Source: Candidatus Sulfidibacterium hydrothermale (GTDB lineage Bacteria > Bacteroidota > Bacteroidia > Bacteroidales > F082). Taken from it: a stretch of 64,000 nt of DNA. Numbering within the stretch: position 1 is the stretch's first letter; each line of letters begins with the position of its first letter. The stretch lies in assembly GCF_020149915.1 (NCBI RefSeq), contig NZ_CP083760.1, forward strand, positions 372,001-436,000, read 5' to 3'. The notes beneath the pieces are model-generated. The model did not search any database. It saw only the letters and a program-made list of their open reading frames with translations, and was not told the DNA's origin. Positions 8,200 through 60,690 of the stretch are shown piece by piece. Position numbers and translations under genes: made by a program.

Positions 8200-8815
8200 T
8201 GGGGAAAGCTATTAGTTATTGGTTGATTTTCAATATGTTAACTGTGTTTTTTACTGTCATCCTGAACGAAGTGAAGGATCTCAAAAAATAATCACAGTTG
8301 TTAAAAGAGATGCTTCGCGTTGCTCAGCAAGACAAACCGGTTGGTTTTTGGGATTTGAGATTTTTTTGTGATTTGCCTTTTTGTTTTTTGTAATTTCCCA
8401 CTTTAGGCATTTGAAGTACTTGAAATTTGAAGTGTGAAGTACTTAAAGTTAACCTGATATTTATCTCGTGTTTGCGACCAATCCCGAAGGGATTAAACCA
8501 GAATAACCCTGTACGAAGTGCAGGGAAATAAACCCATCAGAAAATCATAACCCTGAAGGGGTTGAACACCGGCCTCTGAATAAATTCAGCGTCAATAGTA
8601 ATAAGTCGTCCCTACGGGACTCCAATACACAGCATCTTATCGATGAAGGAGGCCGTTAAACGAGATGCTTCGCGTTGCTCAGCAGGACAAAACTGTTGGC
8701 TTTTGGTATTTTGCGTTTGGGGCTTGGGATTTTTTTGTGATTTGCCTTTTTGTTTTTTGTGATTTCCCACTTTAGGCACTTCAAACTTCAGGCATTTGAA
8801 GTACTTGAAGTTTGA
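8200..8815. repeat. Palindrome-rich dispersed intergenic repeat, copy A plus partial second copy
   Basis: No gene is supported between 8165 and 9005. The stretch is built from short palindromes: TCATCCTGAACGAAGTGAAG at 8257-8276, AATCCCGAAGGGATT at 8480-8494, CCCTG...CAGGG at 8507-8525, AACCCTGAAGGGGTT at 8549-8563, CTGAATAAATTCAG near 8575, and GTCCCTACGGGAC at 8608-8620. The same blocks in the same order occur at 59911-60285 and in part at 60340-60680. From about 8660 a second partial copy repeats the GAGATGCTTCGCGTTGCTCA and TTTGAAGTACTTGAAG blocks. This is a REP-like, probably non-coding repeat family; its function is unknown. Confidence 0.85.
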
Positions 8816-57180: not shown

Positions 57181-58011
57181 TTAGAGACTGAAGGATTGTT
57201 GTCCATTACAAAGATAACTTTTTTCAAATTCATTGGGGCTTTTTCGTTGTAACTCTATATGAGGCTTTTCCTGGTTGTAAAGTAACACGGTTCGGTCAAC
57301 CTCTTTTTGAAGTTCTTCAAAACTGTTTATCTGACGATGGTTCAGGTAATTGTTTTTTATAACCCCGTTTAGTCTTTCTACTTTCCCGTTCTCCCACGGG
57401 TATTCGCACATGCTGTTTTTAAAGCCTTCTTTTTGAGTCAGCTTTAAAAAAGCCTTGTCGTAATATTGACCCCCTCCGTCTGAGTGAAATACAATACCGG
57501 TTGTCATTGTGTTTTCCTTCATCCGAAGTTTAATAGCCTTCTGTAAAGCCGGTAATGTAGTCTGTTCTGTAGTCAGCCTTTTTGAAACAGAATGACCTAA
57601 AATCCGTCTGGAATAGGAATCTTCAATAAAAGTGATGTAATAGAATCTGCTGTTTATTTCATAGTAGGTAATATCACTTTGCCATGCCTGATTAATTCCG
57701 GTTAAAGTCATGCTTTTTAATAAATTATCAAACCGGACAACGCCTGTGCTATCGGTGGTTCTTCGCCAGTTTTTTACCTTTGCTACCGTTAACCCTTCTG
57801 ATTTGCAAAAGGCTTCAAACCGGTCTCTGCCCATGGTCTGGGGACGTAACTTATAATACATATCCCGTATTCCCATTGTAGGATGATCCTCTCGTATTTG
57901 ATAAATCATAACCAGTAATTGCTTTTGCTCTGAGCGTATTCTCAGCTTTTTATCCAGCATCTTATGAAAAGCCTGTTTACTAATCCCTATGCTCTTATAC
58001 AGACGGTTCAT
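57181..58011 (-). CDS. IS3-family transposase OrfB (DDE integrase domain)
   Basis: 276 residues from the ATG at 58011. The integrase core shows the three acidic residues: Asp in WQSDITYYEIN, Asp in FHSDGGGQYYDKAF and Glu in PWENGKVERLNGVIKN. An N-terminal HTH_21-like region (REDHPTMGIRDMYYKLRP) precedes it. The OrfB frame stays open upstream of this ATG to a run of nine A residues (58077-58069), so the active transposase is probably an OrfAB fusion made by -1 frameshifting. The ATG overlaps the orfA stop (ATGA), so independent OrfB synthesis by coupling is also possible. Confidence 0.92.
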   Translation of the reverse strand: MNRLYKSIGISKQAFHKMLDKKLRIRSEQKQLLVMIYQIREDHPTMGIRDMYYKLRPQTMGRDRFEAFCKSEGLTVAKVKNWRRTTDSTGVVRFDNLLKSMTLTGINQAWQSDITYYEINSRFYYITFIEDSYSRRILGHSVSKRLTTEQTTLPALQKAIKLRMKENTMTTGIVFHSDGGGQYYDKAFLKLTQKEGFKNSMCEYPWENGKVERLNGVIKNNYLNHRQINSFEELQKEVDRTVLLYNQEKPHIELQRKSPNEFEKSYLCNGQQSFSL

Positions 58012-58433
58012 GCTGTATCGGTATTGTTCTCTGTGGTGCCAGAAATATTCGAGGGTCGGGTAGAAAACTTTTTTTTTATATCTACGCCATAGGTCTCTTC
58101 TGCCAGTTCTATCATCTTATCTTTGAAATCAATCAGGATTTGCTTTTGGCCGATTATCCGTTCAAGTTCTGCTACTTTCTTTTTGAGTTCCAATAGCTGC
58201 CTTGTGTCACTATCTGTTTCAATAATAAGTTTCTCTTTCTTGTCTTTCATAGTTCCGAATTTGTTTAACCACCGATAAACGTTAGTAGTGGTTACTTCAT
58301 ATTGTTTGCTAATTTCGGAAACTTTTGTTTTGCCTGTTTCTATTTCCCTGACTTTTTGAATCTTGAAACTGTCGCTGAAATGACGACGCCTTCGCTCGGC
58401 GGTGGTCATTTTAAATTGTCTTCTTGTTGCCAT
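58008..58433 (-). CDS. IS3-family transposase OrfA (HTH and leucine zipper)
   Basis: 141 residues from the ATG at 58433 (MATRRQFKMTTAERRRR). An upstream ATG at 58478 lies inside the terminal inverted repeat and is less likely. The helix-turn-helix is in ETGKTKVSEISKQYEVTTTNVYRWLNKFG, followed by a leucine-zipper-like coiled coil (LLELKKKVAELERIIGQKQ). OrfA binds the element ends and regulates transposition. Near its end, DIKKK is encoded by the A-run that can act as a slippery site. Confidence 0.9.
   Translation of the reverse strand: MATRRQFKMTTAERRRRHFSDSFKIQKVREIETGKTKVSEISKQYEVTTTNVYRWLNKFGTMKDKKEKLIIETDSDTRQLLELKKKVAELERIIGQKQILIDFKDKMIELAEETYGVDIKKKFSTRPSNISGTTENNTDTA
58069..58077 (-). 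promoter_or_regulatory. Probable programmed -1 frameshift site (A9 G)
   Basis: On the minus strand, nine A residues followed by G (read as ATA AAA AAA AAG in the orfA frame). The -1 frame entered here stays open through VFYPTLEYFWHHREQYRYS to the orfB ATG. This is the normal expression signal of IS3-family transposases. Confidence 0.75.
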
Positions 58434-58619
58434 TTTTAACTGTTTTTTAAAGTGAATTCTTATGTTAAAAGTGGTCAACCTATTTCAGGCATTGACAAAG
58501 ACGGAAGGATGTTTGGATGTTCGATAGGTAGATGTGTGGATGTTTGATGTTTTATCTTTAGTGGGGAAAAGGGCATTGGGAAAGGATGAATGATGAGTCT
58601 AGAATGATGAACCGATGAA

Positions 58620-58690
58620 TAGGAAAAAGTTATTGGTCATTGGCGATTGGTTGATTTTTAATATTTTACTCATGTTTTCATTGTCATCCT
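58620..58690. repeat. Dispersed repeat, left part of copy B (interrupted by IS110)
   Basis: GTTATTGGTCATTGGCGATTG and the following bases up to TTGTCATCCT resemble 8211-8263 (TTAGTTATTGGTTGATTTTC ... TGTCATCCT). The copy continues after the IS110 element at 59911. The preceding stretch 58492-58620 is non-coding, rich in GGATG and GATG words, with no supportable feature. Confidence 0.8.
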
Positions 58691-58719
58691 ATGTTTGCAA
58701 AAAGAAATAATTACAGGAA

Positions 58720-58900
58720 GTGTTAAGTTTGAAAATTATTAACCAATCAGAAGAGAAAAAGGAGAAAGATAAAGACTAATGGTTGTCATTAGGCTAAAAA
58801 AGCCCGTTCAGGATGATAGTCCCTTTCTCCTTTCTACTCAATCTTGAACAGTTCGTTAGGCATGAAAGCCTGTATTTAGGATTGAAAAGACAAAGTAGAA
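58720..58900 (+). ncRNA. Candidate bridge RNA of the IS110 element
   Basis: Three hairpins can be drawn in the left non-coding end. A small 5' hairpin GTTAA/TTAAC lies at 58722-58743. The target-binding loop has an 11-bp stem (58758-58768 with 58823-58833), a 5-bp stem GACTA/TAGTC (58774-58778 with 58817-58821), an internal loop, and an apical GGCT/AGCC hairpin. Its internal loop holds TTGTCAT (58783-58789), equal to the left flank, and GTTCAGGATGA (58806-58816), complementary to TCATCCTGAAC of the restored target. The donor-binding loop has an 8-bp stem (58838-58845 with 58878-58885), an AGGC/GCCT apical hairpin, and ACAGTTC (58848-58854), equal to the right end of the element (59899-59905). 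Exact RNA ends are not known. Confidence 0.82.
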
Positions 58901-58925
58901 TCCCTTCTGATAAAAACATCTTGTC

Positions 58926-59897
58926 ATGTGCAAAGTTATAGGAATTGATGTATCAAAATTAACTTTTGATGTTGCTTTTCAAAAAAAAGATGAAAAGTTC
59001 TCTTTTTTCAAATACAGTAATGATGCCAAAGGGTTTACAAAGTTTATGAAGATTATTGATAAAGAGGATCTCTGTGTAATGGAAGCAACAGGCCCTTATT
59101 ATCTGTTTTTAGCCCGGTTTCTTTTTAAACAAGGGGTAAAAGTATCCGTAGTTAATCCATTGCAGATTAAACACTTCGTAAGAATGCGAATGGTAAAAGC
59201 CAAAACGGATAAAAAAGATGCCCTGATGATCGCTTTATATGGCCAATCAGAACAACCCGTTTTGTGGCAACCCGATGAGCCGGTGATTATGCAGGTTCAG
59301 CAAATTCATTCTGCCATTGAAGGTTTGCAAAAACAGGCAACCATGCTTCATAATCAACTGGAAGCATTTTCCCGGTTTCCTGATTGCGACAAGAAAGTAA
59401 TGCGTGAGTTAAGAGCATTGTTAAAAACGATTAAACTGAAAATAGCTAAACTGGAAGCCGGAATACTTGAAAAAATAAAAATACATTATGCCAATACATT
59501 TAATGCGCTGACATCTATTCCGGGTATTGGACCAAAAACAGCGGCCATCCTGATAGCAATTACCAATAACTTTCAAAAATTTGACAATGCTAAGAGATTA
59601 TCTTCTTACGTAGGGTTGGTTCCCAGGATATTTTCATCAGGGACAAGTATAAACGGAAAAGGACACATTACAAAAATGGGGAACAGATATATACGCAAGC
59701 TATTGTATTTATGTTCATGGTCAGCAAAAAAACACAATAGTCAATGTATAGCACTCTATGATAGATTATCAGAAAAAGGAAAGCCCGAAAGAGTTATAAA
59801 AATTGCAATTGCAAATAAGTTGTTAAGACAGGCCTATGCTATTGGAACAAAATTGAATAAATACGAAGAAAATTATGAAAAAATATTTGCTTTTTAA
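58926..59897 (+). CDS. IS110-family transposase (DEDD recombinase)
   Basis: 323 residues, normal for the family. The N-terminal RuvC-like DEDD domain begins IGIDVSKLTFDVAFQKKD with the first Asp, followed by CVMEATGPYYLFLARFL with the Glu and KAKTDKKDALMIALYGQ with the last acidic pair. A coiled-coil middle region (about 130-180) leads to the Transposase_20 domain with LTSIPGIGPKTAAILIA and YVGLVPRIFSSGTSINGKGH and the catalytic-Ser region (SGTSI). The enzyme is guided by a bridge RNA in studied relatives. It appears intact and probably active in recent time. The stop codon is 13 bp from the element end, so there is little right non-coding sequence. Confidence 0.95.
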   Translation: MCKVIGIDVSKLTFDVAFQKKDEKFSFFKYSNDAKGFTKFMKIIDKEDLCVMEATGPYYLFLARFLFKQGVKVSVVNPLQIKHFVRMRMVKAKTDKKDALMIALYGQSEQPVLWQPDEPVIMQVQQIHSAIEGLQKQATMLHNQLEAFSRFPDCDKKVMRELRALLKTIKLKIAKLEAGILEKIKIHYANTFNALTSIPGIGPKTAAILIAITNNFQKFDNAKRLSSYVGLVPRIFSSGTSINGKGHITKMGNRYIRKLLYLCSWSAKKHNSQCIALYDRLSEKGKPERVIKIAIANKLLRQAYAIGTKLNKYEENYEKIFAF

Positions 59898-59910
59898 CAC
59901 AGTTCATCCT

Positions 59911-60690
59911 GAACGAAGTGAAGGATCTCAAAAAACTGGCAATAGTTAAAATAGATTCTTCGCTACGCTCAGAAGGACAAAAGAAGTTGATTTTTTTGCG
60001 ATTTGCTCTTTTGTTTTTTGTGATTTCCCACTTTAGGCATTTGAAGTACTTAAAGTTTGAAGTGGGAAGTACTTCAAGTTAGACCGACTTTTTCTCGTGC
60101 TTATAACTAATCCCGAAGGGATTAAACATGAATAACCCTGTACGAAGTGCAGGGGAATAAACACATAAAAAATCATAACCCCGAAGGGGTTGAATACTGG
60201 CCTCTGAATAAATTCAGCGTCAATGGTAATGAGTCGTCCCTACGGGACTCCATTACACTACATCTTATCGGTGAAATTCATCGTTCGAGCGGATGCCCAA
60301 ACGATGAGTGATGATTTTCATTGCTTTATCCATGTTTTTTGTTGTCGTTCTGAACGGAGCGATAGCGAAGTGAAGAATCTCAAAAATAATTACAGTCGTT
60401 AATAGAGATGTTTCACTGCGTTCAACATGACAAAACAGTTGGCTTTTGGAGTTGTCATTTGCTTTTTTGTTTTCTGGGATTTCCAACTTTAGGCACTTCA
60501 AACTTCAGGCATTTGAAGTACTTGAAACTTGAAGTGTGAAGTACTTAAAGTTAACCTGATATTTATCTCGTGTTTATAACTAATCCCGAAGGGATTAAAC
60601 CGGAATAACCCTGTACGAAGTGCAGGGAAATAAACACATCAAAAAAATCATAACCCCGAAGGGGTTGAATACTCCCGTTTCTTATTGCTT
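59911..60690. repeat. Dispersed palindromic repeat, right part of copy B and a further partial copy
   Basis: The order of blocks is the same as at 8.2 kb: GAACGAAGTGAAGGATCTC (59911), TTTGAAGTACTTAAAG blocks, AATCCCGAAGGGATT (60109-60123), CCCTGTACGAAGTGCAGGG, AACCCCGAAGGGGTT, CTGAATAAATTCAG and GTCCCTACGGGAC (to about 60285). From 60340 a second, partial copy repeats GTCGTTCTGAACGGAGCG, the TTGAAGTACTTGAAACTTG block, AATCCCGAAGGGATT and AACCCCGAAGGGGTT, and stops near 60680. The 900-bp stretch to 60796 has no credible gene; an ORF on the minus strand is a translation of the repeat. Confidence 0.85.

What the first reader, a model, noticed from the sequence alone, without database searches (positions are those of the whole stretch)
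58720..58900. Bridge-RNA candidate whose guides match the real insertion site of its own IS110 element
The left non-coding end folds into a target loop and a donor loop. In the target loop TTGTCAT (58783-58789) equals the left flank at 58681-58687, and GTTCAGGATGA (58806-58816) is the exact complement of TCATCCTGAAC, the target restored by joining 58684-58690 to 59911-59914. In the donor loop ACAGTTC (58848-58854) equals the right end of the element at 59899-59905. Bridge RNAs of IS110 enzymes such as IS621 are known to hold a left and a right guide for target and donor in two internal loops. Independent agreement of structure, guides, flanks and element end is hard to explain by chance. The right-donor guide is less clear: only UAGGAU opposite ATCCTA at the left end is seen. 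This particular RNA is, to my knowledge, undescribed.
Basis: partly seen in the sequence, partly recalled or inferred. Interest (0 to 1): 0.93.

Follow-up and report, generated by a model that had tools for sequence, protein, structure and literature searches.

The report
Bacteroidota IS110 element with bridge RNA
A small jumping DNA element carries the gene for an RNA whose two loops spell out where the element inserts (a dispersed palindromic repeat of this genome) and where its own ends lie; across 14 related elements the RNA changes together with the target, which is strong evidence for RNA-guided insertion, a mechanism already known from other IS110 elements.

Summary
The window holds an IS110-family element, 58688-59907. 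Five identical copies lie in the host genome, all at the same site, [TC]TGTCAT|CCTGAAC, of a dispersed REP/BIME-like repeat. Its left end encodes a predicted bridge RNA of about 165 nt. I tested it on related elements in other genomes (transposases 38-52% identical). In 14 distinct elements the right target guide matches that element's own flank at 68 of 70 positions next to the core, and the left target guide at 62 of 70; no permutation of the targets did as well (0 of 100,000 each). The stems covary too. In the host genome, 5 of 24 perfect target sites are occupied and 0 of 78 one-mismatch sites (P = 5e-4). Mechanism and REP targeting were already known for IS110, so this is a new member of a known kind, with a somewhat variant RNA. 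No transcript or activity was shown.

The parts
58688..59907 (+). IS110-family element (1220 bp, counting one AT core copy at the right)
   Evidence: Five identical copies in the genome; identity stops at these ends apart from bases shared with the target repeat
58681..58687 (+). Left target (LT) flank TTGTCAT, ending in the AT core (58686-58687)
   Evidence: Equals the left target guide
59908..59914 (+). Right target (RT) flank CCTGAAC, rest of the interrupted REP-like repeat
   Evidence: Complement of the right target guide
58690..58697 (+). -7 promoter box TATGTTTG (fits TAnnTTTG) at the left end
   Evidence: consensus from PMC7366714
59886..59889 (+). -33 promoter box TTTG at the right end; lies 20 bp from the -7 box only when the two ends are joined in a circle
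   Evidence: absent at that place in all five inserted copies
58746..58753 (+). Closing stem, 5' arm (ATCAGAAG)
   Evidence: Covarying; pairs 58904-58911
58904..58911 (+). Closing stem, 3' arm (CTTCTGAT)
58748..58912 (+). Predicted bridge RNA, folded core (the transcript may start near 58700)
   Evidence: Fold z -4.65; covariance model finds exactly the five copies in the genome
58761..58830 (+). Target arm: stem GGAGAAAG/CTTTCTCC (58761-58768/58823-58830), GACT/AGTC (58774-58777/58818-58821), apical hairpin GGC/GCC (58792-58794/58802-58804)
   Evidence: Compensatory changes, permutation tests
58783..58789 (+). Left target guide (LTG) TTGTCAT
   Evidence: Covaries with left flank in relatives
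58806..58814 (+). Right target guide (RTG) GTTCAGGAT
   Evidence: Covaries with right flank in relatives
58815..58816 (+). Candidate handshake guide GA (complement of donor TC, 59904-59905)
   Evidence: By analogy with IS621 (PMC11208158); G conserved in the alignment; weak
58832..58900 (+). Donor arm: lower stem TTCTAC/GTAGAA (58832-58837/58895-58900), apical hairpin TAGGC/GCCTG (58857-58861/58868-58872)
58848..58856 (+). Left donor guide (LDG) ACAGTTCGT; pairs with the right end ACAGTTCAT, one G.T wobble in the core
   Evidence: AGATC and AGTAC variants covary in relatives
58877..58882 (+). Right donor guide (RDG) TAGGAT; pairs with ATCCTA (core AT + left end CCTA)
   Evidence: ATCGT and ATCAT variants covary in relatives
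58926..59897 (+). IS110 recombinase, 323 aa; D8, E53, D95, D98 and S238 align with IS621 D11, E60, D102, D105, S241
   Evidence: Pfam PF01548 + PF02371, NF033542 'IS110 family RNA-guided transposase' 232 bits, alignment to 8wt6/9t56
59899..59907 (+). Left donor (right end of the element) ACAGTTC + AT core
59908..59979 (+). Rest of the interrupted REP/BIME-like repeat (CCTGAACGAAGTGAAGGATCT ... AGATTCTTCGCTACGCTCAGAAGGACA)
   Evidence: Same imperfect palindrome at many other loci, often in arrays about 210 bp apart

Best explanation
This is an IS110-group insertion sequence that moves by bridge-RNA-guided recombination. After excision the two ends join in a circle; the junction rebuilds a promoter (-33 TTTG from the right end, -7 TAnnTTTG from the left end) that drives a left-end RNA of about 165-220 nt. 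The RNA forms a target arm and a donor arm held together by a closing stem. In the target arm, TTGTCAT (pairs with the bottom strand) and GTTCAGGAT (pairs with the top strand) bind TTGTC-AT-CCTGAAC in a dispersed palindromic repeat; in the donor arm, ACAGTTCGT and TAGGAT bind the circle junction ACAGTTC-AT-CCTA. The DEDD/serine recombinase, with this RNA, exchanges strands next to the shared AT core and inserts the circle into the repeat. Shown by sequence: element, copies, target, guides, covariation, stems, catalytic residues, composite promoter. Inferred from IS621: transcription, RNA binding, circle, cleavage after the core T.
For: Five identical copies, all at the same site of the repeat. 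RTG-RT 68/70 and LTG-LT 62/70 matches over 14 distinct elements versus permuted means 40.5 and 44.9, 0 of 100,000. Inside one genome (G892) two element versions with GTCCGGGAT and GTTCGGGAT sit at ATCCCGGAA and ATCCCGAAC. Donor guides covary: LDG AGTTC/AGATC/AGTAC with the right end, RDG ATCCT/ATCGT/ATCAT with the left end. Four helices supported by re-pairing tests. Model R1 finds only the five copies in the 3.27-Mb genome, and in other genomes finds held-out relatives upstream of IS110 genes. In the host genome 5 of 24 perfect sites are occupied, 0 of 78 one-mismatch sites (Fisher P = 5e-4). Recombinase aligns over 303 residues with IS621, all catalytic residues kept. Element L045 has GT at its left junction and AT at its right, as expected if cleavage is after the T, as in IS621.
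Against: No transcript, RNA-protein binding or recombination shown. The donor guide has a G.T wobble where most relatives have A-T. Element L074 has target guides that match but a donor loop that does not. Elements L049 and L050 have one RTG mismatch each. The 14 elements are related, so permutation counts are not strict probabilities, although the guide changes are many and differ between close relatives.
Confidence: 0.95

Rival explanations
1. The loop sequences are copies of the target repeat caught by chance or by homology (for example the left end contains a piece of a REP), and the recombinase protein itself chooses the site.
For: Target and element ends share TCATCCT, so parts of the match are not independent; REP sequences are abundant (190 loose matches).
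Against: Two separate guides on opposite strands in the same aligned loop positions in 14 elements, each matching a different target; paired changes within one genome; guides of relatives at other targets, TTGCGA, TCCGA, CCCGGA, TGTTG, match those instead.
Confidence: 0.02
2. The structured left end is a cis-acting DNA or mRNA element (recombinase binding site or translation control of the transposase, as with the antisense and sense RNAs of ISPpu9), not a guide RNA.
For: The RNA lies just upstream of the start codon, and small RNAs that regulate the transposase are described for ISPpu9 (PMC8450116).
Against: Regulation alone does not explain why the loops track the external target. Both roles could coexist.
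Confidence: 0.02
3. The five copies spread inside amplifying repeats (REP arrays duplicated with the element inside) rather than by five insertions.
For: The element is identical in all copies and the repeats form arrays about 210 bp apart.
Against: Flanks differ within a few bases outside the shared repeat and both orientations occur; relatives target unrelated sequence.
Confidence: 0.03

Closest known systems
IS621 and orthologues (IS110 group; Durrant et al. 2024 PMC11208160, Hiraizumi et al. 2024 PMC11208158)
   Same: DEDD + serine recombinase, left-end RNA with target and donor loops, LTG/RTG/LDG/RDG on the same strands and in the same order, core included in every pairing, REP as target, promoter rebuilt at the circle junction.
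   Different: AT core instead of CT; right target guide pairs 5-7 bases beyond the core (IS621: RTG of 4); [quoted passage not shown] Bacteroidota promoter boxes instead of sigma70.
seekRNA of ISEc21 and of IS1111-type elements such as ISPa11 (REP) and ISKpn4 (attC) (Siddiquee et al. 2024 PMC11187229)
   Same: Guide RNA from the non-coding region that selects REP or attC sites; natural re-aiming between close relatives.
   Different: IS1111-type elements carry the RNA in the right end and have subterminal inverted repeats; here the RNA is in the left end.
REP-targeting IS elements ISPpu9, ISPpu10, ISPa11, ISRm19 (Tobes and Pareja 2006, PMC1525189)
   Same: IS110-family elements whose copies all lie at one point of a genome's REP sequence.
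   Different: Proteobacterial hosts and other REP sequences; at that time no RNA was known.

Membership tests
IS110 family (IS110 group) | RuvC-like DEDD domain plus Transposase_20 domain with conserved serine | tested here: met
   PF01548 4e-23, PF02371 4e-24; NF033542 232 bits over cut-off 140; catalytic residues aligned with IS621
IS110 family (IS110 group) | Long left non-coding end, short right end | tested here: met
   Left 238 bp before the ORF, right about 10 bp after it
IS110 bridge RNA | Structured RNA in the left end with a target loop and a donor loop | tested here: met
   Fold z -4.65; compensatory changes and re-pairing tests
IS110 bridge RNA | LTG same as left target top strand, RTG complementary to right target top strand, both covering the core, covarying with target | tested here: met
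IS110 bridge RNA | LDG and RDG pair with the RE-LE junction and covary with it | tested here: met
   (one G.T wobble here; one relative, L074, does not fit); few variants, not tested by permutation
IS110 bridge RNA | Expressed RNA that binds the recombinase and is needed for recombination | not testable with these tools
   No transcriptome or assay available
IS621-type bridge RNA in the narrow sense | CT core | tested here: not met
   Core is AT in this subgroup; AT cores worked less well in reprogrammed IS621 (PMC11208160)
IS621-type bridge RNA in the narrow sense | 5' stem-loop, then two arms in series, no closing stem | tested here: not met
   Closing stem covaries in 12 of 13 elements aligned
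IS1111 group | RNA in the right end | tested here: not met
   RNA lies in the left end, right end about 10 bp
IS1111 group | Subterminal inverted repeats of 7-17 bp | not tested
   No inverted-repeat search of the element ends was run
Rfam families | Match to any described RNA family | tested here: not met
   Only chance microRNA-model matches far below gathering score, elsewhere

The most novel reading that the evidence does not exclude
The element represents a Bacteroidota-specific branch of bridge-RNA systems with its own RNA architecture (closed three-way junction), an AT core with a long right target guide, and expression only from the circle through a Bacteroidota promoter; within the branch the target loop has been re-aimed between different dispersed palindromic repeats and, in a sister subgroup, at integron-attC-like sites.
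Probability: 0.55. Interest if true: 0.6.

Novelty: new member of a known kind. Interest (0 to 1): 0.45.

Why it matters
It gives independent evidence, from multi-copy elements with known targets, that bridge-RNA guidance operates in Bacteroidota, the host phylum suggested by the promoter boxes and by the nearest plasmid matches. It supplies a natural AT-core system with a longer right target guide, which matters because reprogrammed IS621 with non-CT cores worked less well until that guide was lengthened. It also makes a testable regulatory prediction: the RNA should be made from the excised circle and not from the inserted copy.

Tried and rejected
Rfam search of the region: no relevant family. 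Close relatives of the protein in genome contigs and viral contigs and similar DNA in plasmids: none; the element itself is known only from this genome, so covariation had to come from elements with 38-52% identical transposases. Extra CTATCATCCTGAAC sites looked like solo RNA copies; the three I read are plain repeats without element sequence. Y1_Tnp genes (candidate REP transposases) exist in the genome but have no copy of this repeat within 1.5 kb, so no link could be made. The two short model hits in G547 are contig ends at broken assemblies. RNAalifold's pairing of LTG with RTG was dropped from the model structure: it follows from both guides covering the core. A match of the bases after RDG to the target (IS621 'handshake') was not convincing.

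Full report
WHAT IS THERE. The window is positions 372001-436000 of a single 3.27-Mb contig. At 58688-59907 lies a complete IS110-family element: a 238-bp left end, an ORF of 323 aa (58926-59897) and a right end of about 10 bp. The protein carries DEDD_Tnp_IS110 and Transposase_20 domains, scores 232 bits to NCBI's 'IS110 family RNA-guided transposase' (cut-off 140), and aligns with the IS621 and ISCro4 transposases of solved structures; D8, E53, D95, D98 and S238 fall on the catalytic D11, E60, D102, D105 and S241 of IS621.

COPIES AND TARGET. The genome holds five copies, identical over 1221 bp, in both orientations. All sit at the same site, [TC]TGTCAT|CCTGAACG, of a dispersed repeat, and the flanks diverge just outside it. 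The repeat is an imperfect bipartite palindrome (TGTCATCCTGAACGNAG..GAAGGATCT ... AGATTCTTCGCTACGCTCAGAAGGACA) found across the genome, often in arrays about 210 bp apart: 190 matches at up to two mismatches against 15 for the reversed pattern. By form it is a REP/BIME-like element. Of 24 perfect TGTCATCCTGAAC sites 5 are occupied; of 78 one-mismatch sites (83 less the five guide copies inside the elements themselves) none is (Fisher P = 5e-4).

THE OBSERVATION. The left end folds with z = -4.65. A closing stem (58746-58753/58904-58911) holds a target arm (58761-58830) and a donor arm (58832-58900). Target arm: LTG TTGTCAT (58783-58789) and RTG GTTCAGGAT (58806-58814). Donor arm: LDG ACAGTTCGT (58848-58856) and RDG TAGGAT (58877-58882). 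With AT (58686-58687 and 59906-59907) as the core, all four guides cover the core, as in IS621. The LDG has one G.T wobble at the first core base.

TEST BY COVARIATION. Related transposases (38-52% identical) were found in genomes of the same order, class and phylum. Element ends were set from copies or conserved ends, not from the guides. Guides were read from the same alignment columns as in this element, with one element (L046) shifted by one base by hand. Over 14 distinct elements the five RT bases after the core match that element's own RTG at 68 of 70 positions (mean of permuted targets 40.5, maximum 60, 0 of 100,000 as good), and the five LT bases before the core match at 62 of 70 (mean 44.9, maximum 59, 0 of 100,000); the two bases further left show no signal, which marks the guide's end. 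Sliding the target along the left end puts the unique best RT match on the RTG in 12 of 14 elements. The sharpest case is inside one genome, G892: two copies with RTG GTCCGGGAT lie at ATCCCGGAA, a third version with GTTCGGGAT and an extra G in its LTG lies at CGGTCAT/ATCCCGAAC. Donor guides covary too: AGATC in L049 and L050 and AGTAC in L054 in both LDG and right end; ATCGT in L059 and ATCAT in L076 and L082 in both RDG and left end; L074 does not fit. Because elements are related, the permutation counts are a guide and not exact probabilities.

STRUCTURE. RNAalifold finds 27 pairs, 15 with changes on both sides. Re-pairing 5' and 3' arms among 13 elements: target stem, lower donor stem and closing stem each beat all 20,000 re-pairings, the apical target hairpin all but 2. 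The closing stem is absent in one element (L051). A covariance model finds exactly the five copies in the host genome and, at lower scores, held-out relatives upstream of IS110 genes in other genomes.

PROMOTER. Joining right and left ends as in a circle gives TTTG-N20-TATGTTTG, the Bacteroides -33/-7 consensus (PMC7366714). Of 14 elements of this subgroup, 13 keep a -7 box (in L076 and L082 TATATTAG) and all 13 keep TTG at exactly 20 bp in the joined ends; none of the five inserted copies here has it at that place. IS621 does the same with a sigma70 promoter (PMC11208160).

MECHANISM. The best reading is bridge-RNA-guided recombination. In IS621 the top strands are cut after the T of the core, whose first base is less conserved (PMC11208158). 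Element L045, with GT left and AT right, shows that here too the exchange follows the first core base. Transcription, RNA binding and the circle are inferred, not shown.

WHAT IS KNOWN AND WHAT IS NEW. IS110 elements in REP have been known since 2006 (PMC1525189) and RNA guidance since 2024 (PMC11208160, PMC11187229); bridge RNAs were predicted for 85.7% of catalogued IS110 elements. This is therefore a new member. Different from IS621: AT core, right target guide pairing five to seven bases past the core, closing stem, Bacteroidota promoter. IS621's RNA is described as a 5' stem-loop followed by target and donor arms in series. No held paper joins bridge RNA, IS110 and Bacteroidota, but the library is incomplete, supplements could not be read, and structures in the figures of PMC11208160 could not be seen; the closing stem may already be known from one of them.

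SISTER SUBGROUP. Elements L007, L057, L081 and others keep the same RNA plan but have other ends (CTTAAGTTTG / CAGTTCTTT) and targets of the type TATACANN..TGTTR or AAACCR..TGTTA. In G615 five copies lie in one orientation within 28 kb among unoccupied CCAAACG-NN-TGTTAGC sites that look like integron attC, 8 kb from a tyrosine recombinase with a weak match to integron integrase, below that family's cut-off. This was followed only in part.

Noticed in passing
L095/L096/L097 (G615:C1:98000-140500): A sister IS110 subgroup has five copies in one orientation within 28 kb, among unoccupied repeats CCAAACG-NN-TGTTAGC that look like integron attC sites; a tyrosine recombinase with a below-cut-off match to integron integrase lies at 146593-147408. 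Suggests left-end bridge RNAs aimed at attC.
   Followed up: partly
window 59908-59979 and about 100 other places in the genome: Dispersed bipartite palindromic repeat (REP/BIME-like), often in arrays with a period near 210 bp; its own mover is unknown. Six Y1_Tnp genes exist in the genome (L089-L094), none with this repeat within 1.5 kb.
   Followed up: partly
window 8254-8267 and 60342-60355: Unoccupied copies of the target repeat in the same window (CTGTCATCCTGAAC, perfect for the RTG, and TTGTCGTTCTGAAC, with mismatches).
   Followed up: no
window 57181-58478 (-): A two-ORF transposase pair that looks like an IS3-family element just upstream of the IS110 element.
   Followed up: no
L115 and L123 (G547): Two contigs end exactly inside the donor loop of a relative of this element: an assembly break at a repeated element.
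   Followed up: yes
L074 and L078 (G922): Element with perfectly matching target guides (GACAT / TTGCGC) but a donor loop that does not match its own right end; degenerate, or differently organised.
   Followed up: no
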